Of a stretch of DNA of 64,000 bases, positions 7,951 through 52,046 are shown in pieces; position 1 is the first letter of the stretch, and every line of letters begins with the position of its first letter. This DNA comes from a virus, in the IMG/VR virus record IMGVR_UViG_3300021961_000068, positions 1 to 64,000 of that record; one strand, 5' to 3'. Under the pieces are notes generated by a model that saw only the letters and a list, made by a program, of their open reading frames with translations, searched no databases and was not told the origin of the DNA. Position numbers and translations under genes: made by a program.

Positions 7951-8658
7951 CTATTGACTTGCCTGTTTTACATATTTCTCATCTAGGTCGTATCCGATAT
8001 AGCGTCTACCGAGTTTCTGTGCCATAGATGTGGTGGTGCCTATCCCATTGAAGGGGTCTAGGACAATATCATCAGGTTGTGTGGTTAGAAGGATGCAGTT
8101 TTCCACCAATTGTGGTGGGAATGGCGCAGGGTGTGTGGTTTGTCTTTGTGGTGAAATGTCCCATATTTCACCTAGGTATTTTGAGTCTATGTTCCCGCGA
8201 AATGTTTTTGGCTTGTTCTTAGATAGCCAATAGATGTGTTCTGTGTTTGGGAGTAGATGGTCTTTGCGTATGTTCGGACTGTTCTTGCGGTTCCAAATAA
8301 TGAGTTGATAGATGTTTGCATTTGTCTTGTGAATGAACTCTGTTGGTAGCCGTGCTTGATTATTGTGTCGTCTTGGTTTGTGATTAAAAAAGATGGATCC
8401 GTCGGGGGTAATAACACGGTGTAGTTCGTTGATTATTTCTATCATCCATTCTTGATACATTTTTTCTGGCATGTTGTCGTGATATTCGTTGTAATCAATG
8501 TTGTGTTTCTGCCATATTTGATTACTGTTCTGTGTTTTACCGTTCTGTATTCCTTTTTTGTTGTATGGGGGTGAGGTGACAACAGTGTTGATTGTGCAAT
8601 CAGACAATTTTTTTAATTCATCTAACGCGTCAGCGCATTTCACGAAGTTTGATTCCAC
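7951..8658 (-). CDS. DNA methyltransferase (beta class, N6-adenine or N4-cytosine)
   Basis: The 235-aa enzyme has the catalytic motif TSPPYN near residue 29 and the S-adenosylmethionine motif LDPFNGIGTT near the C-terminus, the permuted order of beta-class amino-methyltransferases. TSPPY leaves N6-adenine or N4-cytosine open. It probably methylates phage DNA against host restriction; no partner nuclease is adjacent. The start is taken as GTG 8658, 10 bases after the previous stop, with a GGAG and an AAACTAAAC leader. A second GTG at 8643 is possible. Confidence 0.88.
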   Translation of the reverse strand: MESNFVKCADALDELKKLSDCTINTVVTSPPYNKKGIQNGKTQNSNQIWQKHNIDYNEYHDNMPEKMYQEWMIEIINELHRVITPDGSIFFNHKPRRHNNQARLPTEFIHKTNANIYQLIIWNRKNSPNIRKDHLLPNTEHIYWLSKNKPKTFRGNIDSKYLGEIWDISPQRQTTHPAPFPPQLVENCILLTTQPDDIVLDPFNGIGTTTSMAQKLGRRYIGYDLDEKYVKQASQ

Positions 8659-8668
8659 TCCGTTTAGT

Positions 8669-9859
8669 TTATTTAACTAGGGACTCCTCGGCGAGTCTTA
8701 ACGAGGCAATTTTTGCATATTCGGGGTTTATTTCGCATCCAATCCAATTTCGCCCATATTTCTGTGCGACTAAACCTGTTGTCCCTGAGCCAAAAAACGG
8801 GTCTAGAACAGTGGCGGGAACTGGTTGACTGTTTATGCATTCACAAGTTTTCTGCCAACCAACTTGATGTTGTGGTATAGCAACCATGTCAACACTATTA
8901 AGACGAGTAGTTGTCAATCTGTTTGGATGAACACCCAATGTGTTGTCTCTTGTTTTTCTTTCAGGTATTGTGCCTTTTTCCATTTTGCGTTCGTATTGTT
9001 TTCCGCATTGATTGCAAACACCGAATTCTGATGTGCCAGAAAGAATGCATGGTTCTATGAGTTCTGGTGGAAATGTTGCAAAATGTGCTTCTTTGAATGG
9101 TTTTACATTTATTGTCCAAACAGATCTTCTATTGCGCTTACCATCTTGTCGTGTGAGGTTTGATGTGACTCCTTTGCCGTGAACCACTCTTTGTGTTCCG
9201 TTGCGTGTACCGTCTCCAACGATTACATTTCCTGCTGTTGCCCCCGCTTCTTTGCGTTCTTGCCATGTTGCGCCGGGTTTTGTTTTTGCATCTTCTTGTA
9301 TTGCTCGTGAATCAAAAAAATATTTTGGCGATTTGGTTAGAAGAAATATGTACTCATGGCTTTTGGTGCATCTGTCTAGAACAGATTCAGGCATCGGGTT
9401 GGGTTTAGCCCAAATAATGTCTTGTCTTAAATACCATCCGTCTGCTTGTAGGGCGAAAGCAAGACGCCATGGGATACCGACTACATCTTTGTGTTTGATT
9501 GAAGTGTTGACAAATGACGACGCCATACGGTTGGATGCTTTACCTTTTTCTACAAGCGTTCCGTCACTTTCGCCTCGTGCGGTGTCAGGTGTGACTTTCC
9601 CATCTCTGAACGACGCATAACTATCACCAATGTTCAGCCACAAGGTGCCATCGTCTCGCAACACCCGATAAATTTCTCGGAATACTTTTACTAGTTCTTC
9701 AATATATTCGGTTGGTGTCGGCTCTAAACCTAGTTGCCCTTCGTTGCCGTAGTCTCGTAACCCCCAATAGGGCGGGCTCGTAACACAGCAATGAACCGAT
9801 TTATCTGCTATCTGTTTGAGTGTGTCCCGCACATCGCCAACAAGTAAATGGTTTTTCAT
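8669..9859 (-). CDS. DNA methyltransferase with zinc-knuckle insert
   Basis: The 396-aa protein has TSPPYWGLRDYG at residues 27-38 and LDPFFGSGTTG near residue 360, a permuted beta-class amino-methyltransferase. Between them lie WAKPNPMPESV, HEYIFLLTK and a Cys cluster (FGVCNQCGKQYE and CECINS) that may bind zinc. It is clearly paralogous to the enzyme at 16227-17603. The ATG overlaps the previous stop as ATGA. It lies beside a ParB-like gene, a pairing often seen in phages, and likely modifies phage DNA. The target sequence cannot be read. Confidence 0.9.
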   Translation of the reverse strand: MKNHLLVGDVRDTLKQIADKSVHCCVTSPPYWGLRDYGNEGQLGLEPTPTEYIEELVKVFREIYRVLRDDGTLWLNIGDSYASFRDGKVTPDTARGESDGTLVEKGKASNRMASSFVNTSIKHKDVVGIPWRLAFALQADGWYLRQDIIWAKPNPMPESVLDRCTKSHEYIFLLTKSPKYFFDSRAIQEDAKTKPGATWQERKEAGATAGNVIVGDGTRNGTQRVVHGKGVTSNLTRQDGKRNRRSVWTINVKPFKEAHFATFPPELIEPCILSGTSEFGVCNQCGKQYERKMEKGTIPERKTRDNTLGVHPNRLTTTRLNSVDMVAIPQHQVGWQKTCECINSQPVPATVLDPFFGSGTTGLVAQKYGRNWIGCEINPEYAKIASLRLAEESLVK

Positions 9860-10284: not shown

Positions 10285-11052
10285 TTAATAGTTTGCGTGT
10301 GCGTCAACGAAATTTAATACTCGTTCCGCAGTTGTTTCTCCGTCCGTGCCAGGATCTGTTTTTAGCCAGCGAATAAAGTCGTACCATTTTCGTTGTTGGT
10401 CAGGGCTGTCAAATACGAGCGTGTATTGAACTATGGTTTTGGAACCGTTTGCCACCACAGATGGTGCGCCTTGAGTTACTGCTTGTTGTATGTCTGTGCC
10501 TTTGGGCGCGGTGAGCATTGTTTCACCGTTCTCCATTTGAGTGCTTATTGCAGTTGGGTTATTTGATGATTCCGTCGTTGCTATTTGTTGAATGACTGGT
10601 GCTTCGTAGGGTACGTCATCCTCTTGGTAGTATTCGCCTTCCATGGCGGCTAAATCAAATTGATCCCAGCCAAGCGCATCTATCAGTGTGTCGTATTGTT
10701 CTCCGACTTCTCCTAGTAATTCAAAAAGCATATTGCTGTCTGTGGTACCGAGTTCATTTGTTCGGTTGTCGGCTAAGGCGTAAGCAATAGCGCTTTCTGT
10801 GTCGCCTTCAAATTTGACGCAAGCAATTTTATCCCAACCAAGTTTTTTAGCGGCTTCGTATTGATGGTTGCCTGCAATGATTGTTGAAGTTCCATCTTTA
10901 TTGTCTTTAATCACGATCGGCTTTACTTGACCGAATTCTTTGTATGAGGCAACAATTGCGTCTATGTTGCCTTTTCTTGGGTTGTTCTCTAGGTGAACAA
11001 GTTCGGAGAGGGGAACAGCCAAGTGCTCAATGTTTTTGTGAATATTAGACAT
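10285..11052 (-). CDS. ParB-like nuclease-domain protein
   Basis: The N-terminal 100 residues are a ParB/sulfiredoxin-type domain: VPLSELVHLENNPRKG, then GQVKPIVIKDNKDGTSTIIAGNHQYEAAKKLGWDKI and ADNRTNEL. The G-N-H-Q-Y form replaces the usual GHRR-type motif, as in many phage ParB-like proteins beside DNA methyltransferases. Such domains can bind CTP or act on DNA. The C-terminal half (about 150-255) is unrecognised. It lies between a helical 114-aa gene and a winged-helix gene. A DNA-modification accessory role is more likely than plasmid-type partition, because no ParA is present. Confidence 0.82.
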   Translation of the reverse strand: MSNIHKNIEHLAVPLSELVHLENNPRKGNIDAIVASYKEFGQVKPIVIKDNKDGTSTIIAGNHQYEAAKKLGWDKIACVKFEGDTESAIAYALADNRTNELGTTDSNMLFELLGEVGEQYDTLIDALGWDQFDLAAMEGEYYQEDDVPYEAPVIQQIATTESSNNPTAISTQMENGETMLTAPKGTDIQQAVTQGAPSVVANGSKTIVQYTLVFDSPDQQRKWYDFIRWLKTDPGTDGETTAERVLNFVDAHANY

Positions 11053-11397
11053 CTATAATCCTGTTTGTACACGAACATTGGCGTTCAAGGTTCTGAGTGC
11101 GTCCAATGATGTTCGCACGGTCAATAGTTTTTCTCTCTTAGATTTAACCAACGCCTCACTAATCTTATATGAGTACGCTTCGTCAGAAAGTTTGTAGTCA
11201 GCCCACGCTTCTCGTTCCTTGATGCTTCCTTTGGCGGCTAGGTATTCTTTAGCCCAGTTGCCTTTCATAAGTGCATCTTTTTTCGCCGCATCTACTGCGA
11301 GAACTTCAAATGCCTCGGTTTCTTCTTCAAGAATACTCAACAAGCGCATAATCTCCGACTCAATTTCCACCTGCGATATGGGTTGCGACCTAGCCAT
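11053..11397 (-). CDS. Helical hypothetical protein, 114 aa
   Basis: I do not recognise a named family. The protein is almost wholly helical and charged (SEIMRLLSILEEETEAFEVLAVDAAKK, then SYKISEALVKSKREKLL), likely a coiled-coil bundle. Comparable small helical proteins sit beside RuvC-like genes in actinobacteriophages. Its ATG overlaps the end of the RuvC-like gene by eight bases, and its stop lies one base before the ParB-like start. A DNA-replication accessory role is inferred from neighbours only. Confidence 0.65.
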   Translation of the reverse strand: MARSQPISQVEIESEIMRLLSILEEETEAFEVLAVDAAKKDALMKGNWAKEYLAAKGSIKEREAWADYKLSDEAYSYKISEALVKSKREKLLTVRTSLDALRTLNANVRVQTGL

Positions 11398-11920
11398 TTT
11401 TGTCCTTTTCTATTTCCTTGAAATCACATTTATCTAATCCGAGCATTTGTTCTTTTCGCCATTCGTATTCAGAAAAACCTAAATATGTAAGCGTCATTTG
11501 TTCTAGTATCCACGCATCGCATTTGTCGCTTCCATCAGCACCTGTAAACATTATCCCTGTTTTCTGTGCTACGGCGCTCATAACTTCTATTTTCCCTGAA
11601 TTACCTTTTCCTGTAGCAAATTTAGCCCTACATGTCGGTGGAATTATGACGATGGGAAGACCCAATTCCTTCATGGCGACTTTTACGACTCCACCTAGTT
11701 CCCCAATGGAGTGGGCTTGAGAATACTGAGAAGCATACGAATAGCCTTCAATTGCGACTATTTCTATTTTTTCGTTTTTTGCGATTTTTACGATTTCGTC
11801 ACGAATCTCTATGAGGCGTTTTGCACCCCTATTTTTTGACTTTATGCTCTGAGTTAACCCACCGACGCTTACCCCTGTGCTCGTCAATGAGAGATCTAGA
11901 CCCATCACATTTTTTTTCAC
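11390..11920 (-). CDS. RuvC-like Holliday junction resolvase
   Basis: The 176-aa protein starts with the RNase-H-fold signature GLDLSLTSTGVSV (catalytic Asp near residue 9), has IVAIEGYSYAS with the second acid near residue 56, and SDKCDAWILEQM with a late Asp pair, the spacing of RuvC-type resolvases. It would cleave branched DNA before packaging. The start is GTG 11920, with no ribosome-binding site. A -10-like TAATGT lies seven bases upstream, and only 26 bases separate it from the divergent GTG at 11947, so both transcripts are probably leaderless. Confidence 0.82.
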   Translation of the reverse strand: MKKNVMGLDLSLTSTGVSVGGLTQSIKSKNRGAKRLIEIRDEIVKIAKNEKIEIVAIEGYSYASQYSQAHSIGELGGVVKVAMKELGLPIVIIPPTCRAKFATGKGNSGKIEVMSAVAQKTGIMFTGADGSDKCDAWILEQMTLTYLGFSEYEWRKEQMLGLDKCDFKEIEKDKNG

Positions 11921-15894: not shown

Positions 15895-16188
15895 ATGACA
15901 TCAAAACAACCTAAAAAATCCAACAAAAAGAAGGCTCCTGCGAAGAAGGCTCCCGCAAAGAAGGCGTCTGCTAGCAAAAAGGCTTCCGCATCTAAAAGCA
16001 CAATCGGTGTTCAAACAAAAGACGCAGATCTTCTGCTGTCAAAAGTGGGCGAACAAAAAACACAGTTTGTGGGCGCAGAAAAAATGATGAAAGCGATTGC
16101 TGAAACATCAACTATCGTTAGGGCAAATGACGTAAAGTCAAAATCTATTCGTCAAAAAATGCTTGCGTGGTTTAAAATTTCCAAGTAG
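15895..16188 (+). CDS. Histone-H1-like Lys/Ala-rich basic protein
   Basis: Residues 4-38 of this 97-aa protein are built from repeats of KKAPAKKAPAKKASASKKAS type, as in the tails of histone H1 and actinobacterial HupB/Lsr2-associated proteins. The rest is a helical domain (ADLLLSKVGEQKTQ, EKMMKAIAETSTIV, SIRQKMLAWFKISK). It likely binds DNA without sequence preference, compacting or masking phage or host DNA. ATG 15895 is chosen because TAGGGT lies seven bases upstream; the frame is open further 5' but has no other good start. It is followed by a methyltransferase gene with its own promoter. Confidence 0.65.
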   Translation: MTSKQPKKSNKKKAPAKKAPAKKASASKKASASKSTIGVQTKDADLLLSKVGEQKTQFVGAEKMMKAIAETSTIVRANDVKSKSIRQKMLAWFKISK

Positions 16189-16191: not shown

Positions 16192-16226
16192 TTGTCTCCT
16201 ACATGGGAGACAACGGGGGAGACGCA

Positions 16227-17603
16227 ATGACAGAAACAATTAGTGGGCTGCCTCTAAATCTTGATCCCAAAATTCTTCTTGGTGATGTCCGAGAAACTTT
16301 GGCTTCGTTGCCAGACAAAAGTATTCATTGCGTAGTCACATCGCCACCGTATTGGGGTTTGCGGGATTATGGCACGGCAACTTGGGTGGGTGGAGATCCC
16401 GATTGCTCACATAAAAGAGACAGTAAATTTAGCGAAAGTTGCTCAACCGGACAAAAACTTTTAGAGGGTGCGATTGGCGACGGAATCTACAAGGTTCAAT
16501 GTCCTCGTTGTGGCGCAATGAGGGAAGATAGCCAACTTGGTTTAGAGCCAACAGTGGATGAATATGTAGAACATATGGTTCAAGTTTTTCGTGAAGTTCG
16601 TAGAGTTCTACGAGACGATGGGACTTTGTGGCTAAATCTTGGTGATTCTTATGCAGGTAGCAACGGTAACGGTTGGAAGCAAGCGATTGCTACAACGAAT
16701 GCTTCAAACGGTGGCGGGGAAAACGAGATTTTCAGAGCAAAAAACGGTAGAGATGACGGCGATTTAAAACCAAAAGATTTGGTTGGTGTGCCATGGCGTG
16801 TGGCTTTTGCGTTGCAAGCAGACGGGTGGTATCTGCGTCAGGATATTATTTGGGCTAAACCGAACCCGATGCCTGAATCGGTGCGAGACAGATGCACCAA
16901 GGCGCATGAGTACATGTTTTTGCTCACTAAAAAATCTCATTATTTTTTTGACAGCGAAGCAATTAAAGAGCCAGCCAAATATGCTTATGATGACAGGGGG
17001 TCTCGTGCTGATAGTAGAAAAGGAGCAGGGATATCTAATGCGATGTATGGCTCAACAGGGGCATTCAGGAACAAGAGGTCAGTATGGACAGTAACTACCA
17101 AACCGTTCAAAGGGGCGCACTTCGCCACATTTCCACAAGACCTGATAGAGCCTTGTATTGCTGCTGGTACGAGCAAAAAGGGTTGCTGTGCTCAATGTGG
17201 CTCGCCGGTGGTTCGTCAAGTCAGTCGCAAACGGATAGCACGCAACGAACTTCCGACAAACGACCCGAGATACCGACCAAACGACTACAACGGCGCATAT
17301 GGAGAAATAAATGGGAAAGGGGACGCAGGGTTCTCTCAAACAGACACAATTGGTTGGGCTAAAGAATGTAAATGTGACACCCAAGAGGTTGTCCCTTGTA
17401 CTGTTTTGGATGTCTTTTTCGGTGCAGGAACCACTGGTGTCGTAGCCCAAAGACTCGGTAGGGCGTACCTTGGGTGTGAGTTGAACCCCGAATACGCAAA
17501 AATAGCGACCGAACGCCTCGCAAGCGAAAAAGAAAAAAACAGGCTTTTAGCAATAGAAAATGAAAGCCAGCCTTCTTTATTTGAGGTTGCTTCCGACGAG
17601 TAG
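16227..17603 (+). CDS. DNA methyltransferase with two Cys clusters
   Basis: The 458-aa enzyme has TSPPYWGLRDYG near residue 41 and LDVFFGAGTTG near residue 400, the permuted beta-class order. It shares long stretches with the enzyme at 8669-9859 (DDGTLWLN, WAKPNPMPESV, HFATFP). It differs by an inserted Cys region (PDCSHKRD...VQCPRCGAM) besides the later CCAQCG and CKCD pair, so one or two zinc sites are likely. ATG 16227 has GGGGGAG six bases upstream; an upstream ATG at 16203 is less likely. It probably marks phage DNA at a site different from its paralogue. Confidence 0.88.
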   Translation: MTETISGLPLNLDPKILLGDVRETLASLPDKSIHCVVTSPPYWGLRDYGTATWVGGDPDCSHKRDSKFSESCSTGQKLLEGAIGDGIYKVQCPRCGAMREDSQLGLEPTVDEYVEHMVQVFREVRRVLRDDGTLWLNLGDSYAGSNGNGWKQAIATTNASNGGGENEIFRAKNGRDDGDLKPKDLVGVPWRVAFALQADGWYLRQDIIWAKPNPMPESVRDRCTKAHEYMFLLTKKSHYFFDSEAIKEPAKYAYDDRGSRADSRKGAGISNAMYGSTGAFRNKRSVWTVTTKPFKGAHFATFPQDLIEPCIAAGTSKKGCCAQCGSPVVRQVSRKRIARNELPTNDPRYRPNDYNGAYGEINGKGDAGFSQTDTIGWAKECKCDTQEVVPCTVLDVFFGAGTTGVVAQRLGRAYLGCELNPEYAKIATERLASEKEKNRLLAIENESQPSLFEVASDE

Positions 17604-18176: not shown

Positions 18177-18542
18177 TTACGGGCGTAAAAATGTTATAGC
18201 GACTCTCTCGCTTGCTCTCACAAGCAAAAACAATGCTTCAGTTTGTGTGTGTGTTGAACACCATTCCGAGATTTCTGTATCAGTAATAAGTTCCAAATAT
18301 TCACAAAAGAATCTTGACCTACCACACATAAATGGTGGCACACCGCACTCTTCTGCTTCCATGAAGCCTTCTGCTAAAAGTTTTTCTTTAGCGCCACATG
18401 CAAGAAGTATTGCCCCCCATATATCTATTTCTTTTGTGTATGGATCGTAGGTTGCGTAGTTGGAGAACCCATGTTCCTTTATGTAGTCAATAGCCTTGTC
18501 GTAGATCCCGTCAGCCCCAAGTTGTTTTAATGTTGGGAACAT
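18177..18542 (-). CDS. Hypothetical protein, 121 aa
   Basis: I do not recognise the family, but the layout suggests a small Cys-containing helical domain (DKAIDYIKEHGFSNYATYDPYT, ILLACGAKEKLLAEGF, CEYLELITDTEISEW). Similar stand-alone proteins occur in actinobacterial phages and hosts. Its ATG overlaps the stop of the ribonucleotide reductase by one base (TAATG), so it is translated from the same mRNA. A nucleotide-metabolism role is possible from context alone. Confidence 0.65.
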   Translation of the reverse strand: MFPTLKQLGADGIYDKAIDYIKEHGFSNYATYDPYTKEIDIWGAILLACGAKEKLLAEGFMEAEECGVPPFMCGRSRFFCEYLELITDTEISEWCSTHTQTEALFLLVRASERVAITFLRP

Positions 18543-20470
18543 TATCTAATTGGGCAAGCACCTGTTGCACAATCGTCAAGCGACAATTCTGAACCTGTTG
18601 CCTGACTTAAAGGCAAAGATGTATCAATCTTTTTCACAAGTGCATCATAATCGGCTTGAGTGATCTGCTCATACGGAGGAAGTGGGAAGTTGTGGTCTGC
18701 GTGCAGAAGAAATGATACCGATTTGACACCGGTGTCATAATTTTTTGACAACCATTCTTTGATTGATTCAAGTTCTTCTTTGCGGTAATAAACGGTTACA
18801 GAAACAGCGTTGTCAGCCCATTCTGTCTGCATTTTTTTGACCCATTCAAGTTGTTCTACTGCCGTCATGTTCTCGGCGAGAACTGCGTTGTCTGGTGACT
18901 TGCATGGGAACTCAACGACATAACGACTGTGATCCTCGCGACCATCAATACCGATGTCCCAAACAACCTTATGTCCCCTTGCACGCAAGCCTGCCACAAG
19001 GGCGTCAGACGCACCAAAACGCACCCTACGGATGTAAAACGGCGCAAATGCGGGATGAATGCCCGGAGTGATACCGGGGAGCAAGGAGAGCGTTCCTGAC
19101 GGTTGGACAGTGGTAAGTCTGACAGAACGAGGGAAGCCTTTTTCCTTTGAGTAATAAATGTCAAACTCGTCTAGGTGTCTGTAAGCCTCGTCCAGCCAAG
19201 AAACTTGCTCTGCTGAAGCCTGCAAAACACCAGAAATGCTTTGTCCTAGTCGTGCATTTTTTGCAACGATTGCGTTTGTTTTTGCATAGGGGTAGGTAAG
19301 ACGGGTGATCTGTTTTTGAACCATGTAGAGAAGTTCTGATATTTCTTTGAATTGTTTGATGTCGCAGATATTGGGTAGGAATATGGTTGAAAGATTGCAT
19401 GACTCTCCGTCACCTAAACCGATCTCGGCGCATGGGTTGAAACCTTCAATGGTTTTATCTGCTCGTTCTTCTTTGAGGCGACCGTATTTGCGGGCAAGAC
19501 GGCGATTTACGAGACCGTAAGGTTCTCCACCGCCCGTATAGCCCTTCCATAGTTCAGGCATGATGTGGTCGTAGTAGTCGGCATAGATGCTGTTGTTTGA
19601 ATTTGCTCGGTAACCAGGGATATCTCCCGAAGCCCAATTTTTTGCTCGCAGGAAAAGCACATCGTCGGGGTCGCCAATAGCGATTTGAGCGGAGCGACGA
19701 GATGAACCCGAGACAACCACGCGACCGATGATGTTGCAAATGTCTAGAACATCAATTGAGCGAAGTTTCTTTCCCTCTCGTGCTTCCATGACTTGGCATA
19801 TGTCTGTAATTCCGTCAACTAGTGCGCCAGGTCCGCTTGCTGTACCGCCAAATGTTTTGAGGGGTGCACCGAATTCTCGGATAAGAATCGTTGAGTATGA
19901 GAATGATTTACCTGTATCAAAATATGATTTCAATACGCTGTGTAGTAGTCGTCGCCAACCTTGACGGGAATCGGGGACAATAATGTCTGCGTCGTTTGAA
20001 CGCTCGTGAGTGATTTTTACATTAGGGAGAACCTTTGGAAGATCGTGAATTTTTGCTCGTTCCACAGAGAACCCAACACCACCGCCAAGCATTAGGTGGT
20101 CAAAAAGAAACTCAAAATCTTCTACTTTTTCTATGTTTACGAAATAGCAGTTATTAAGCGATGCGGCGTTAAATTGTTTGATGAGTGGTGTCCCCAGTTG
20201 CCAAAGAGCACGACCTGAGAACGAACCACGCAAGTTGAAAACATGATCAAAAAGTTTCTCTGCTTGAGTCTTAGTAAGAGGAGTTCCAATATCTATGGCT
20301 CCGTTTACACAGCGTTGTACAGTTTCAAGCCAAGTTTCATTGCGATTCATGTCCTCAATGCGTCGAGAATATGTGCGGAGGTAGACAACTTCTCCTAGCC
20401 CATTAAATCCCCAAGGAGGTGTCTGTGTTTTGTATTGGTCTACGAATTCTTGGGATAGGTGGGCAGTCAT
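18542..20470 (-). CDS. nrdJ: Adenosylcobalamin-dependent (class II) ribonucleotide reductase
   Basis: The 642-aa protein matches the monomeric RTPR type of class II reductases. It has NNCYFVN (redox C108), NPCAEI (345-350, thiyl radical C347) and GESCNLST (redox C358); the 11-residue gap between C347 and C358 equals that of the Lactobacillus enzyme. PSGTLSLLPG and the C-terminal CATGACPIR re-reducing cysteines are also present. It converts ribonucleoside triphosphates to dNTPs using coenzyme B12, so phage replication would depend on cobalamin in the host. AGAGGA precedes the ATG. A 121-aa gene is coupled downstream. Confidence 0.95.
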   Translation of the reverse strand: MTAHLSQEFVDQYKTQTPPWGFNGLGEVVYLRTYSRRIEDMNRNETWLETVQRCVNGAIDIGTPLTKTQAEKLFDHVFNLRGSFSGRALWQLGTPLIKQFNAASLNNCYFVNIEKVEDFEFLFDHLMLGGGVGFSVERAKIHDLPKVLPNVKITHERSNDADIIVPDSRQGWRRLLHSVLKSYFDTGKSFSYSTILIREFGAPLKTFGGTASGPGALVDGITDICQVMEAREGKKLRSIDVLDICNIIGRVVVSGSSRRSAQIAIGDPDDVLFLRAKNWASGDIPGYRANSNNSIYADYYDHIMPELWKGYTGGGEPYGLVNRRLARKYGRLKEERADKTIEGFNPCAEIGLGDGESCNLSTIFLPNICDIKQFKEISELLYMVQKQITRLTYPYAKTNAIVAKNARLGQSISGVLQASAEQVSWLDEAYRHLDEFDIYYSKEKGFPRSVRLTTVQPSGTLSLLPGITPGIHPAFAPFYIRRVRFGASDALVAGLRARGHKVVWDIGIDGREDHSRYVVEFPCKSPDNAVLAENMTAVEQLEWVKKMQTEWADNAVSVTVYYRKEELESIKEWLSKNYDTGVKSVSFLLHADHNFPLPPYEQITQADYDALVKKIDTSLPLSQATGSELSLDDCATGACPIR

Positions 20471-21423: not shown

Positions 21424-21912
21424 ATGGAAACATCCTTAATAACCCCACCAACGGTCAGAAATCTAGAAGAAGCAAGAGAGCAATGTCTTGAATATGACGC
21501 AGTTTTGACCGCAGGACCAAACAAAGATGAAGTCAGCGACTTCAATCACCCTATTCATAAAGTCGTTCAGTTTATTGACACTGCGTATGAGAAGAACGGC
21601 GGACCGACCTTAGAGAATGTTGTTGAACTTATAGAGTTCGGCGCAGGTGTCCCCAAATTGTTGGTGCACTGTCACGCAGGTATTTCCCGTTCAACAGCAA
21701 CAGCGTGGGGGGTATCAATAGCAAACGGCAACGATCCTTTGGAAGCATTTCTATACCTGCAAGATAAACACCCTGAAGAAAAAGGATATTTCGGTCACGG
21801 TAAAAGACCCTTTGCGCCGAACATCCTAATTGTTAAGCACCTAGATACATATTTCAATCTTGGTACTACTCTTTTGGAAATTCGCAACAAGTATTCACGG
21901 AGAGGTTGGTAA
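21424..21912 (+). CDS. Dual-specificity/tyrosine-type protein phosphatase
   Basis: The 162-aa protein has the cysteine-phosphatase loop HCHAGISRS (C83 nucleophile, R89 phosphate-binding Arg) in a short domain of dual-specificity type, with D39 (VSDFNHP) a possible general acid. The helix STATAWGVSIA after the loop and the following EAFLYLQDKHP fit the fold. It would remove phosphate from proteins, RNA ends or small molecules. It leads an operon, and the next gene is a deacetylase-family enzyme starting five bases later. The purine-rich leader has no clear Shine-Dalgarno sequence. Confidence 0.85.
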   Translation: METSLITPPTVRNLEEAREQCLEYDAVLTAGPNKDEVSDFNHPIHKVVQFIDTAYEKNGGPTLENVVELIEFGAGVPKLLVHCHAGISRSTATAWGVSIANGNDPLEAFLYLQDKHPEEKGYFGHGKRPFAPNILIVKHLDTYFNLGTTLLEIRNKYSRRGW

Positions 21913-21916
21913 AGCA

Positions 21917-22888
21917 ATGAAGGTTTTTTGGAACGAAAACTACACATCCATCAAATATGACTTTGATACATCAAGAAAATCCAACAATATTGTTCGTTTA
22001 ATTAACAAAATAGCGTCAGAAACACCTACGAAAGTTCGTGTGTTGCAGGATGTTCCGACAGTAGAGATAGTTGATCCCGAACAAGTATCCGACATTTCAA
22101 AAACAGAAAAATTGATTAACAGATGGTTGCACCCCACATATGTTGAGGCGTTAAAAACGAACAACAACCCACGACTATCGCAAAGTCAAGGTTTTGAATG
22201 GTGTCCCAACACTTACGAGTTTGCTCGTGCACATACACACGGTTTAATCGCATCAGTTGATCAAGTTTTAGTGAATGGTGGGAGAAGCGGAAGTCTTTCT
22301 TCAGGTTTGCATCACGCATCAAAAACTAGTGGCGCAGGATTTTGCACAATCAACGGCATAGCACTATCAGCAATTCACGCATACGAGCAAGGTCTTGAAC
22401 CTATAGTTTTAGACTTTGACGCACATTGCGGTGGAGGCACGATGGACTTTTTAAAAACTTTCAATGGTGTTTTGCAAACCAAAGACACTATTTTAGGTAA
22501 ATCAACACCCTTAATCCGTCACATTGATTTATCAACCAACTACTTTGACGAATACGAGATTAAAGTTCATGAAACTTGGGCGAATCTGCATGTTCTTGAC
22601 TGGGAAGAAGATTATTTAGACGAAGTACAAAAATCTCTTTCTTTAACAGAACCTCACATCACCGACAAAACTGTGTTTATTTATAATGCAGGGATTGACC
22701 CTATTGGTTCGCAGGGGATAGATGAGGAAGTTATCGGGCAACGAGAAAAAATTGTTTCCGAATTCATTGGTAACCGCAAGGCTGTCTTTGCGTTAGCAGG
22801 CGGTTATTCAGGTATGTCAACAACACGAGACGATGTGGCAAACATGCACCTCAAAACGATTTATGGTTGGTCATGGCAGACGAAATAA
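21917..22888 (+). CDS. Histone-deacetylase-superfamily amidohydrolase
   Basis: The 323-aa protein keeps every catalytic feature of class I/II deacetylases and acetylpolyamine amidohydrolases: the His pair SGLHHA (H132, H133), GAGFCTINGIA, zinc ligands D168 and H170 in LDFDAHCGG, D261 in NAGID, and Y297 in AGGYSG. The second His of the usual DAHHG is Cys here (C171). It would remove acetyl groups from lysines or polyamines. The N-terminal 90 residues carry no recognised domain. It is co-transcribed with the phosphatase. This enzyme class is rarely reported in phages. Confidence 0.85.
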   Translation: MKVFWNENYTSIKYDFDTSRKSNNIVRLINKIASETPTKVRVLQDVPTVEIVDPEQVSDISKTEKLINRWLHPTYVEALKTNNNPRLSQSQGFEWCPNTYEFARAHTHGLIASVDQVLVNGGRSGSLSSGLHHASKTSGAGFCTINGIALSAIHAYEQGLEPIVLDFDAHCGGGTMDFLKTFNGVLQTKDTILGKSTPLIRHIDLSTNYFDEYEIKVHETWANLHVLDWEEDYLDEVQKSLSLTEPHITDKTVFIYNAGIDPIGSQGIDEEVIGQREKIVSEFIGNRKAVFALAGGYSGMSTTRDDVANMHLKTIYGWSWQTK

Positions 22889-23139
22889 TTCACGGGCTTT
22901 ACGCCACATATACGAACGAAAAATGCAGATGCCCCATCTGTAAAAAAGCCGCCGCCGAATATATGCGCGGTTACAGAAAAACAGCCGTAGGTAAAGACAA
23001 TGCAAAGTTTTATCAAATTGTTGCAAATAAACGCTCACAAATGGCTATCAAATGGATCAAAGATAATCACCCAGAACAATGGGATAAGATATGTGCTAGA
23101 GCATTAAAAATTGTTGAAAAACAAGAAAGCAGAGAATAA
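22873..23139 (+). CDS. Small zinc-knuckle protein (HG-Y-C-C-P-C type)
   Basis: The 88-aa protein begins MADEIIHGLYATYTNEKCRCPICKKAAAEYMRGYR, here cited in parts: HGLYATY and CRCPICKKA. This is a known small actinobacteriophage pattern where Cys residues hold one zinc ion. The remaining helix (WIKDNHPEQWDKICARALKI) is amphipathic. ATG 22873 overlaps the end of the deacetylase gene by 16 bases. It may act as a DNA- or protein-binding adaptor; the role is unknown. Confidence 0.7.
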   Translation: MADEIIHGLYATYTNEKCRCPICKKAAAEYMRGYRKTAVGKDNAKFYQIVANKRSQMAIKWIKDNHPEQWDKICARALKIVEKQESRE

Positions 23140-48425: not shown

Positions 48426-48934
48426 GCGAATTCCCTTTTAAAAATGTTGACAGGCTTAAGCCTTTCCTTGAATTTCGTAAAGCGTTAATGGCGGTAGAAG
48501 AAAGCGCTTTACAAAATTTAGAAACAGACGATGAGCAACTATGGTATGACACCCTTGTCTTGCTTCACTCAATCAAAGGTGATGTTGCTTCTATGTTTAC
48601 GCAATATTCAAACCTGTTCGCAAACAAAATTGAGACCGATGAAGCAACAGCATCTAACGGTCAAAAGATTGAGAAGAAATCGGCGTTTGATCGCAAAGGA
48701 TGGAAGCACGAAGATCTTGCTTCTGAGGTTTTACGGAGACTCAATGATTTGTCTGTTGATATGGATACGGGCGAAGTTGTCATGTCAGCCAATGAGGTTG
48801 CTATGAAACTTCTTGACTATGTACAACCTTCTTATTGGCGCATAAAAGAGTTGTCAAAACTAGGTATCAATGCAGATCAATACTGTGAAGTAGGCGAACT
48901 TAAAACAAGCATCATCGTAAGAAAGGAACAATAA
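48422..48934 (+). CDS. Hypothetical protein, 170 aa
   Basis: I do not recognise this mainly helical protein (FLEFRKALMAVEESALQNL, then LWYDTLVLLHSIKGDVASMF). It starts as ATGA-type overlap with the regulator and ends one base into the Rad52-like gene. The C-terminal half (DLASEVLRRLNDLSVDMDTG, VGELKTSIIVRKEQ) is alpha/beta. Its place in a recombination operon suggests a partner of the annealase or nuclease, by context only. Confidence 0.65.
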   Translation: MSEFPFKNVDRLKPFLEFRKALMAVEESALQNLETDDEQLWYDTLVLLHSIKGDVASMFTQYSNLFANKIETDEATASNGQKIEKKSAFDRKGWKHEDLASEVLRRLNDLSVDMDTGEVVMSANEVAMKLLDYVQPSYWRIKELSKLGINADQYCEVGELKTSIIVRKEQ

Positions 48935-49629
48935 TGAATAACATTTATTCACAACTCACAGAATCTTTTCCACCCGAAATGGAAAAACGCCTCAACAAAG
49001 GTGGCGCGAACTTGGTCTATGTGCCAATTAGTGAGGTCATCAACCGTATGAATAAAGTTCTCGGCGTGGAAAATTGGTCGTTCACTGTCAAAAATTGGCA
49101 ACAACTTGGAACATCAATCGTTGCCCAAGTTTCTGTCGTCGCAACTATTGAAGGCAATACCGTTACCCGTGATGGTGTTGGCGGACAAAAAATTAAAATG
49201 TCCAAAAATGGTGACCCTGTTGATATTGGGGACGAAGTTAAAGGCGCTGTTTCGGACGCTTTGAAGAAAGCGGTTCAGACTCTTGGCATTTGCTTGTATC
49301 TTGCCCGCTCAGAAGAAGCAATTGAAATAGAGCAAGCAATGGAAGCCACTGCGGTTGTATCTTTAGCGCCTGTTGTCTCTCCTAAATATGCGCAGTTCAA
49401 AACATTACTTGAAGCCAAAGATGAAAATAAAGCAAAGATTAAAAGTTTTTGGTCTAACTATGGCGGAGGTCGCCCTGTTCCTAAACCATCAGAGTTCACC
49501 GAAGAAGAACTTGATGTGCTTATTACAGAACTAATTTCTTACCAGTTTGAAGGATCAGTTGTCGTGGAAACGCCGACACCTAAAAAGACCAAATCTCCCG
49601 AGATGCCACCTCGCAAAGATATTGACTAG
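48934..49629 (+). CDS. Rad52/Rad22-like single-strand annealing protein
   Basis: The 231-aa protein fits the phage Rad52/22 or Sak-type annealase fold: MEKRLNKGGANLVYVPISEV, NRMNKVLGVENWSF, VVATIEGNTVTRDGVGGQK and VKGAVSDALKKAVQTLGICL. These proteins anneal complementary single strands during phage recombination. The C-terminal third (PTPKKTKSPEMPPRK) is flexible. It overlaps the previous stop and is followed by a Cas4-like nuclease, the usual annealase plus exonuclease pair. Confidence 0.85.
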   Translation: MNNIYSQLTESFPPEMEKRLNKGGANLVYVPISEVINRMNKVLGVENWSFTVKNWQQLGTSIVAQVSVVATIEGNTVTRDGVGGQKIKMSKNGDPVDIGDEVKGAVSDALKKAVQTLGICLYLARSEEAIEIEQAMEATAVVSLAPVVSPKYAQFKTLLEAKDENKAKIKSFWSNYGGGRPVPKPSEFTEEELDVLITELISYQFEGSVVVETPTPKKTKSPEMPPRKDID

Positions 49630-50912: not shown

Positions 50913-52046
50913 TTGACCCGTCAACGACTGTTCCTTGACACATCGTGTGTTGATGCGGCAAGAGAACGGCTACGCCATGTCTACAACACTTTTGACACTG
51001 TCTGCTACCAATTTTCTGGAGGGAAGGACAGCACAGCCATAATTTATTTGGCTAAAGAAATACACGAAGAAAGAAACCTTGGAAAAGTAAAAGTTATTTT
51101 TCGTGACGAAGAAATGGTTAGCCCTGCCGTAATCAGATTTGTTGAAAAAGTTCGGCAATACGATTGGGTTGACATGGAATGGTATTGCCTTCCATCGGGT
51201 CAAGAGATTTGGGTTTTAGGTAGACGAGAATATGTTTTGTTGTGGTCACCCCAACGACGAGAAGATGGTCGTTTAATAAGAGAAATGCCTGAGTGGGCTA
51301 TTAAGGCGGAACATTTTGGTTTAGATCCGTCTAAACCCTGTCCGAATCTTGTTGATTATTACACCATGCAAGGCAAAAAAGGTAGAACTGCCTTCGTTAT
51401 GGGTGTTAGAGCAAACGAGTCAATGGTTAGGTATCGGTCGTGTGTTCAAAAACTTCACGAAAATTATATTGTTTCCCCGTTCCTACTGCAAAAATCTATT
51501 CCATTAAAATTTGCAAAAGTTATTTACGATTGGACAACTGAAGACGTTCTCAAATTCATTATTGACGAACACAAAGCCGAGTATTGCGAATATTATGACT
51601 TGGCTGAATTAACTGGAAGCAATAGTCGTGTTGGGATACCGCTTCACTCAGTTGCAATTCGGAGAATAGGTGATGTTGTTGCAACCGAACCAGAGTTCTA
51701 CGACCAACTTGTTCGTTGTTTCCCGCAGATAGACGCACAACGAAGATACTGGGCGGATTTCAACATTGAGACACTCATTTTAAATTATGCGGTCAATGGG
51801 TGGGATGGTGTTTCTGAGTGCATAGATGACCACATGCTGACGCCAGGTATCCGCTTAGACGCACTAAAATTTGCTTCCGCGTTTCGCAAAAAACGTGCCG
51901 TAGATCCTCACGGGTTCCCCTTGGAGTATCTAATAAGAACTTTGATGTTAAATGAATTCCATCAGTCAACACCAACACCCGTAGGACCCAAAACAAGAGC
52001 GCACACAATGAGGCTTAAAGCCATAGAGGCTGGAGAGGATTACTAA
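50913..52046 (+). CDS. PAPS-reductase-family PP-loop ATPase, IbrA-like
   Basis: The 377-aa protein has the PP-loop FSGGKDST (34-41) and DEEMVSP, IRFVEKVRQYD, RANESMVRY features of the phosphoadenosine phosphosulfate reductase superfamily. Phage and prophage members often pair with a ParB-like protein as IbrA/IbrB; the next gene, three bases on, is just that. DndC-type DNA sulfur modification is the main alternative, but no DndA, D or E is near. It starts at TTG 50913. The true reaction is unknown, and a DNA-modification or host-regulation role is most likely. Confidence 0.82.
   Translation: MTRQRLFLDTSCVDAARERLRHVYNTFDTVCYQFSGGKDSTAIIYLAKEIHEERNLGKVKVIFRDEEMVSPAVIRFVEKVRQYDWVDMEWYCLPSGQEIWVLGRREYVLLWSPQRREDGRLIREMPEWAIKAEHFGLDPSKPCPNLVDYYTMQGKKGRTAFVMGVRANESMVRYRSCVQKLHENYIVSPFLLQKSIPLKFAKVIYDWTTEDVLKFIIDEHKAEYCEYYDLAELTGSNSRVGIPLHSVAIRRIGDVVATEPEFYDQLVRCFPQIDAQRRYWADFNIETLILNYAVNGWDGVSECIDDHMLTPGIRLDALKFASAFRKKRAVDPHGFPLEYLIRTLMLNEFHQSTPTPVGPKTRAHTMRLKAIEAGEDY

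What the first reader, a model, noticed from the sequence alone, without database searches (positions are those of the whole stretch)
21917..22888. Phage-encoded histone-deacetylase-superfamily enzyme with an intact active site
All catalytic positions (H132/H133, D168, H170, D261, Y297) are present with spacing close to the bacterial HDAC homologue, while the second His of DAHHG is Cys. Deacetylases of this class are rare in phage genomes. Possible substrates are polyamines bound to DNA, acetylated host RNA polymerase or nucleoid proteins, or the phage's own Lys-rich protein at 15895.
Basis: partly seen in the sequence, partly recalled or inferred. Interest (0 to 1): 0.75.

Follow-up and report, generated by a model that had tools for sequence, protein, structure and literature searches.

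The report
Phage zinc amidohydrolase, HDAC superfamily
A virus of (probably) freshwater actinobacteria carries a real, selected enzyme gene from the histone-deacetylase superfamily; it belongs to a little-noticed branch, shared by many uncultured phages and scattered bacteria, with one otherwise conserved catalytic-support residue replaced by glycine, and its most likely job is to strip an acyl group from a small amine such as a polyamine rather than from proteins.

Summary
Window 21917-22888 (+) is a 323-codon gene with a ribosome-binding site and omega of about 0.1, matching Pfam Hist_deacetyl (5.7e-18). Its AlphaFold2 model (pLDDT 94) matches HDAC-fold enzymes, best the cluster-5 (class-IV-like) VcHdaH. 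Zinc ligands D168/H170/D261, tandem H132/H133 and Y297 are invariant in the 80-member alignment. 'Intact active site' needs correcting: the residue that orients the general-base His (Asp in HDAC8, Asn or Gln elsewhere) is Gly173, and Gly in 112 of 113 scorable relatives. The RPP motif of robust deacetylases is replaced by SSGLHH.

The branch covers at least 74 IMG/VR loci, annotated Rhodococcus phage E3 gp202, and scattered bacteria. In beta-proteobacterial MAGs a member sits inside a polyamine-uptake operon; an actinobacterial member abuts a spermidine-acetyltransferase-like gene. Best guess: an N-acyl-amine (acetylpolyamine-type) hydrolase. Fatty-acyl-lysine deacylase is the main rival. The upstream DSP-like phosphatase is syntenic but not obligate: related phages keep it without the deacetylase.

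Novelty: new variant of a known kind. Substrate unproven.

The parts
21917..22888 (+). HDAC-superfamily (PF00850) amidohydrolase gene, 323 aa
21899..21905 (+). GGAGAGG, likely ribosome-binding site 11 nt before the ATG at 21917
   Evidence: sequence printed; inference
22298..22315 (+). SSGLHH: foot-pocket loop (replaces the RPPXHH of robust deacetylases) plus tandem H132/H133
   Evidence: PMC11532494
22412..22441 (+). D166-F-D168-A-H170-C171-G-G173-G-T175: first-dyad Asp, two zinc ligands, and Gly173 in place of the second-dyad Asp/Asn/Gln
   Evidence: PMC11532494
22697..22699 (+). D261, third zinc ligand (YNAGID)
22805..22807 (+). Y297, oxyanion-stabilising Tyr (AGGY)
21424..21912 (+). syntenic neighbour: dual-specificity-phosphatase-like protein (HCHAGISRS), ends 4 nt before the amidohydrolase
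   Evidence: Pfam DSPc 1.8e-4, below its cut-off; HCHAG.SRS invariant in 19 relatives; AF2 model and Foldseek matches to DSP/PTP structures; not an obligate partner
22876..23139 (+). syntenic downstream small Cys-pair protein (87 codons from a start at 22876; CRCPICKKAAAEYMRGYRK), its family present also where the amidohydrolase is missing
   Evidence: no Pfam or NCBIfam family

Best explanation
The gene encodes an active zinc-dependent amidohydrolase of the arginase/deacetylase fold. By the family mechanism, zinc held by D168, H170 and D261 activates water and the acyl carbonyl, H132/H133 handle protons, and Y297 stabilises the oxyanion. It most likely releases a free amine from an N-acylated small molecule, an acetylpolyamine or similar, during infection, giving the phage usable polyamine for packaging or translation. 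Shown here: gene, family, residues, purifying selection, phage distribution, polyamine operon around some bacterial relatives. Inferred: activity, substrate and role. How H133 works without its Asp/Asn/Gln partner is unexplained; a water or a neighbouring side chain may take over.
For: Pfam PF00850; catalytic residues invariant in 80 relatives; omega about 0.1; AF2 pLDDT 94.2, pTM 0.93, with many HDAC-fold structures matched. Bacterial members: in four beta-proteobacterial MAG loci (two of them close relatives of each other) the gene follows potD-potA-potB-potC, overlapping potC by 4 nt in L107, L109 and L120; L107 also has glutamine/gamma-glutamylputrescine-synthetase-like, aminotransferase and a second potF-like gene downstream. 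In actinobacterial L105 the gene directly follows a GNAT whose best NCBIfam match is spermidine/spermine N1-acetyltransferase PaiA (5.9e-19, below its cut-off); a 77%-identical GNAT piece lies at the contig edge beside L091. Precedent: giant-virus acetylpolyamine amidohydrolases release spermidine (PMC9992855).
Against: The polyamine context belongs to bacterial relatives only about 32-33% identical to this protein. Most bacterial loci show no such polyamine genes within 5 kb (blast, one search list). None of 30 records carrying this gene encodes AdoMetDC/SpeD. The RPP motif present in characterised bacterial polyamine deacetylases (PMC11532494) is absent. A Glu three residues after the zinc Asp, possibly comparable to the HDAC10 PEG gatekeeper, is in 28 of 38 bacterial rows but only 5 of 42 viral rows and not in this protein, so specificity may have shifted in the phage arm. 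Gly173 could lower activity.
Confidence: 0.42

Rival explanations
1. A longer-chain (fatty) acyl-lysine or acyl-amine deacylase of the class-IV/HDAC11 type, removing acyl groups from host or phage proteins or a lipid-like metabolite.
For: Best solved relative by profile and by fold is VcHdaH 9GKV/9GKY, crystallised with decanoic acid, then by fold Leptospira HDAC11 with dodecenoic acid. RPPXHH is replaced by SSGLHH, resembling SGGYHH of VcHdaH and GGGFHH of HDAC11, linked to an enlarged foot pocket (PMC11532494).
Against: Identity to VcHdaH is only about 20%; the subfamily is a separate, well-supported clade from the class-IV-like rows tested; VcHdaH's own activity was too weak for kinetics (PMC11532494); polyamine operon context of some bacterial members.
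Confidence: 0.25
2. A protein deacetylase that resets lysine acetylation on host or phage proteins, or reverses an acetyltransferase-type host defence.
For: Superfamily precedent (KpHdaH, HDACs); neighbour is a DSP-like phosphatase, giving a possible pair of modification erasers.
Against: RPP motif of robust acetyl-lysine deacetylases is missing. The phosphatase pairing is not obligate: 35 phosphatase loci are followed by the amidohydrolase but 18 are not, 13 of these running straight into the next conserved gene, and 40 of 74 viral amidohydrolase loci show no such adjacent phosphatase (some are cut by contig ends). No match to defence models in PADLOC.
Confidence: 0.15
3. An amidohydrolase acting on another small N-acyl metabolite (for instance an acylated amino sugar or nucleotide precursor) in phage nucleotide or cofactor metabolism.
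For: Frequent phage neighbours are ThyX and, a kilobase or more away, ribonucleotide reductase; Graf et al. leave small-molecule substrates open for VcHdaH.
Against: The neighbours are general phage metabolism genes; no conserved biosynthetic partner was found.
Confidence: 0.13
4. A catalytically weak or inactive HDAC-fold protein kept as a binder or sensor.
For: The general-base partner is Gly in 112 of 113 scorable relatives against Asp in all 45 outgroup loci.
Against: All zinc ligands, tandem His and Tyr are strictly invariant in 80 rows, which is hard to explain without catalysis; some bacterial members sit in a polyamine uptake and breakdown operon.
Confidence: 0.05

Closest known systems
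Vibrio cholerae HdaH (VcHdaH, PDB 9GKV/9GKY; cluster 5b of Graf et al. 2024, class IV/HDAC11-like)
   Same: HDAC fold, zinc ligands, tandem His, Tyr, no RPP motif, best profile (4.5e-43) and best fold match
   Different: About 20% identity; GDG instead of GGG after the zinc His; different foot-pocket loop; subfamily separates from class-IV-like rows in the tree
Rhodococcus phage E3 gp202, 'putative histone deacetylase protein'
   Same: Same subfamily, same DFDAHCGGGT and SSGLHH motifs, phage-encoded
   Different: 37% identity in the alignment; different gene neighbourhood; has the Glu after the zinc Asp that this protein lacks
Acetylpolyamine amidohydrolases (M. ramosa APAH, PsApaH, giant-virus APAHs)
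   Same: Superfamily and general mechanism; possible shared substrate class
   Different: No RPP motif here; weaker profile and fold match than VcHdaH; giant-virus APAHs form their own lineage (PMC9992855)
HDAC8 / KpHdaH (class I and cluster 1 deacetylases)
   Same: Zinc ligands, tandem His, Tyr
   Different: Asp183/Asn186 general-base partner is Gly here; the RPP motif of KpHdaH is absent
Microbacterium phage Magritte gp204
   Same: Unannotated phage HDAC-superfamily protein with HH, DWDAHHGDG and AGGY
   Different: 26% identity, GDG present, falls with the outgroup, on a very long branch

Membership tests
HDAC superfamily (Pfam PF00850, arginase/deacetylase fold) | Profile match above the curated cut-off | tested here: met
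   65.7 bits against 27.9
HDAC superfamily (Pfam PF00850, arginase/deacetylase fold) | Asp-His-Asp zinc ligands, tandem His, catalytic Tyr | tested here: met
   D168, H170, D261, H132, H133, Y297 invariant in 80 rows
HDAC superfamily (Pfam PF00850, arginase/deacetylase fold) | Asp/Asn/Gln partner for the general-base His (conserved in characterised members, not needed for the Pfam assignment) | tested here: not met
   Gly173; Gly in 112 of 113 relatives; expected residue from PMC11532494. Read as a variation within the superfamily, not exclusion from it
HDAC superfamily (Pfam PF00850, arginase/deacetylase fold) | Zinc-dependent amide hydrolysis | not testable with these tools
   needs an enzyme assay
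Cluster 5 / class IV (HDAC11-like) | Best sequence and fold similarity to class IV enzymes | tested here: met
   VcHdaH first by profile and fold, Leptospira HDAC11 next by fold
Cluster 5 / class IV (HDAC11-like) | GGGXHH-type loop instead of RPPXHH | tested here: inconclusive
   SSGLHH: RPP absent, but not the GGG form
Cluster 5 / class IV (HDAC11-like) | Nested within class IV in a tree with all classes | tested here: inconclusive
   Separate clade from a small class-IV-like outgroup (99 SH-aLRT); class I, II and APAH rows were not included
Acetylpolyamine amidohydrolase (cluster 4) | RPPGHH motif | tested here: not met
   SSGLHH
Acetylpolyamine amidohydrolase (cluster 4) | L2 polyamine-specificity loop and head-to-head dimer | not tested
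   no model coordinates or oligomer prediction available
Acetylpolyamine amidohydrolase (cluster 4) | Genomic association with polyamine metabolism | tested here: inconclusive
   seen for some bacterial relatives; SpeD not found in the phage records

The most novel reading that the evidence does not exclude
The branch marked by SSGLHH and DxDAHxGGGT is a distinct functional class of the HDAC superfamily, with altered general-base chemistry and its own substrate, which phages of actinobacteria have taken up to manipulate a host acyl-amine pool or undo an acyl-based host response.
Probability: 0.2. Interest if true: 0.75.

Novelty: new variant of a known kind. Interest (0 to 1): 0.5.

Why it matters
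A systematic search of viral polyamine enzymes reported acetylpolyamine amidohydrolases only from giant viruses (PMC9992855), and the main survey of bacterial HDAC-type enzymes does not contain the word phage. This branch supplies a phage-borne lineage in many metagenomic viral contigs, with a single clear oddity (Gly at the general-base partner) that makes a mechanistic question directly testable, and an isolated phage (Rhodococcus phage E3) in which a deletion could be made.

Tried and rejected
A defence or counter-defence reading: no PADLOC match. A tight phosphatase-deacetylase functional pair: rejected as obligate by the reciprocal scan. Co-encoded polyamine synthesis via SpeD: absent in 30 records. 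A co-encoded acetyltransferase in the phage: no PF00583 match in the 73-kb record and only one marginal match over the cut-off in nine related records. Riboswitch or other RNA element: no Rfam match in the window; promoter-like patterns were no more frequent than in shuffles and terminator-like ones only slightly. A wider genome survey in the order of one beta-proteobacterial carrier found only 2 of 300 genomes with the gene, one of them the carrier itself, so the operon statistics could not be enlarged. PHROGs has no matching family. Literature searches for phage deacetylases gave nothing on this family; subscription journals are not held, so the original phage E3 paper was not read. A mycothiol-type role (phosphatase plus deacetylase) was considered and dropped for lack of any supporting gene.

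Full report
Check of the observation. Window 21917-22888 (+) is a 323-codon open frame; the reverse strand is full of stops. It matches Pfam Hist_deacetyl at 5.7e-18 and PDB HDAC sequences, best phmmer E 7.9e-12. A GGAGAGG lies 11 nt before the ATG, and dN/dS against relatives is about 0.06-0.12 where dS can be measured. The gene is real and selected. The window lies in a 73-kb virus record; the capsid protein's best isolated relatives infect Brevibacterium and Gordonia, which suggests an actinobacterial host. The freshwater origin is my inference and was not tested.

Active site. In an alignment of 80 viral and bacterial relatives, D166, D168, H170, D261, H132, H133 and Y297 are invariant. 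More telling is G173. Graf et al. 2024 (PMC11532494) describe the general-base His as oriented by Asp (HDAC8 D183) or Asn (KpHdaH N186), with Gln also listed. Here it is Gly, in 112 of 113 scorable subfamily loci, the one exception having Asp; all 45 outgroup loci have Asp. These counts include some redundant contigs (L009 and L055 are the same phage). 'Intact' is therefore right for metal binding, the His pair and the Tyr, but not for the second dyad.

Fold and class. The AlphaFold2 model has pLDDT 94.2 and pTM 0.93. The best PDB folds are VcHdaH (9GKY, 9GKV) and Leptospira HDAC11 (9GZ5), ahead of HDAC6, HDAC8 and APAH. A profile of the subfamily also ranks VcHdaH first, 4.5e-43. VcHdaH is the cluster-5b enzyme of Graf et al., with weak de-decanoylase activity. 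The RPPXHH loop of robust deacetylases is replaced by SSGLHH; VcHdaH has SGGYHH and HDAC11 GGGFHH. In a quick ML tree the subfamily separates from a small class-IV-like outgroup with 99 support; class I, II and APAH rows were not in that tree, so its place in the superfamily is open. Coordinates of the model could not be read, so the surroundings of H133 were not inspected.

Distribution. Among 50,697 phage records only Rhodococcus phage E3 (two copies, annotated 'putative histone deacetylase') and Microbacterium phage Magritte match; a query with the E3 protein adds weaker matches including huge phages and Staphylococcus phage records. IMG/VR gave 74 loci and the genome collection 39 loci of the subfamily in Actinomycetota, Chloroflexota, Pseudomonadota, Planctomycetota and others. 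In the tree, one arm is mostly viral with some Acidimicrobiaceae rows, the other mostly bacterial; some 'bacterial' contigs could be unrecognised phage. In the viral structure library only giant-virus HDAC/APAH proteins match well. The class is thus rare in isolates but a recurring family in uncultured phages.

Context of bacterial relatives. In beta-proteobacterial MAG loci L107, L108, L109 and L120 (L108 and L109 are close relatives) the gene sits just after potD, potA, potB and potC homologues, overlapping potC by 4 nt in L107, L109 and L120; in L107 a glutamine or gamma-glutamylputrescine synthetase relative, an aminotransferase and another potF-like gene follow. NCBIfam scores for the Pot and synthetase proteins are below the equivalog cut-offs, so names are by similarity. 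In L105 a GNAT with best match to spermidine/spermine acetyltransferase directly precedes the gene, and a 77%-identical GNAT piece lies beside L091. Other bacterial loci show no common theme. This is the main evidence for an acyl-polyamine substrate, and it concerns relatives about 32-33% identical to the phage protein.

Context of phage relatives. Upstream of the window gene is a DSP-like phosphatase, 21424-21912, with HCHAG.SRS invariant in 19 relatives and structural matches to DSP/PTP enzymes. It is directly upstream in 34 of 74 viral loci. A reciprocal scan found 35 phosphatase loci with the amidohydrolase next and 18 without (one more ended at a contig edge); in 13 of the 18 the phosphatase runs straight into the same downstream Cys-pair gene. 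The amidohydrolase therefore behaves as an optional gene in a conserved spot. Other viral relatives have ThyX or ParB-like neighbours. No SpeD was found in 30 records and no acetyltransferase in the window's record.

Specificity hint. A Glu three residues after the zinc Asp is present in 28 of 38 bacterial rows and 5 of 42 viral rows, and absent here. It may correspond to the HDAC10 PEG gatekeeper described, but the correspondence is not secure because the loop is shorter here. It is a reason for caution in carrying a polyamine substrate over to the phage arm.

Judgement. Zinc amidohydrolase of the HDAC superfamily: near certain by sequence. Acyl-amine substrate of polyamine type: about 0.42. 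Longer-chain deacylase: 0.25. Protein deacetylase: 0.15. Other small metabolite: 0.13. Inactive: 0.05. Compared with the literature, viral acetylpolyamine amidohydrolases were reported only from Imitervirales (PMC9992855), and the bacterial deacylase survey does not mention phages. I therefore class it as a new variant of a known kind, with one annotated precedent in phage E3.

Noticed in passing
window 21424-21912: DSP-like phosphatase family, found in over 50 IMG/VR loci with and without the amidohydrolase; no match in 50,697 phage records.
   Followed up: partly
window 18542-20470 (-): Class II (B12-dependent type) ribonucleotide reductase, PF17975/PF02867/PF21995.
   Followed up: no
window 7951-8658, 8669-9859, 16203-17603: Three DNA methyltransferases of the N6/N4 type, plus a ParB-like protein (10285-11052) and a weak RuvC-like match (11390-11920), in one phage fragment.
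   Followed up: no
window 50913-52046 and 48934-49629: PAPS-reductase-domain protein and a Rad52-like annealing protein.
   Followed up: no
L010 7908-8873 (Microbacterium phage Magritte): gp204, annotated hypothetical, looks like another phage HDAC-superfamily protein outside this subfamily.
   Followed up: partly
one search hits H6, H7, H13, H14: Huge uncultured phage records (595-735 kb) hold HDAC-like stretches; records without annotation.
   Followed up: no
L066, L087, L114, L116: A second DSP-like lineage (HCHMGxNRAPS) lies near amidohydrolase genes in these loci, next to it in L087 and L114.
   Followed up: no
   Followed up: no
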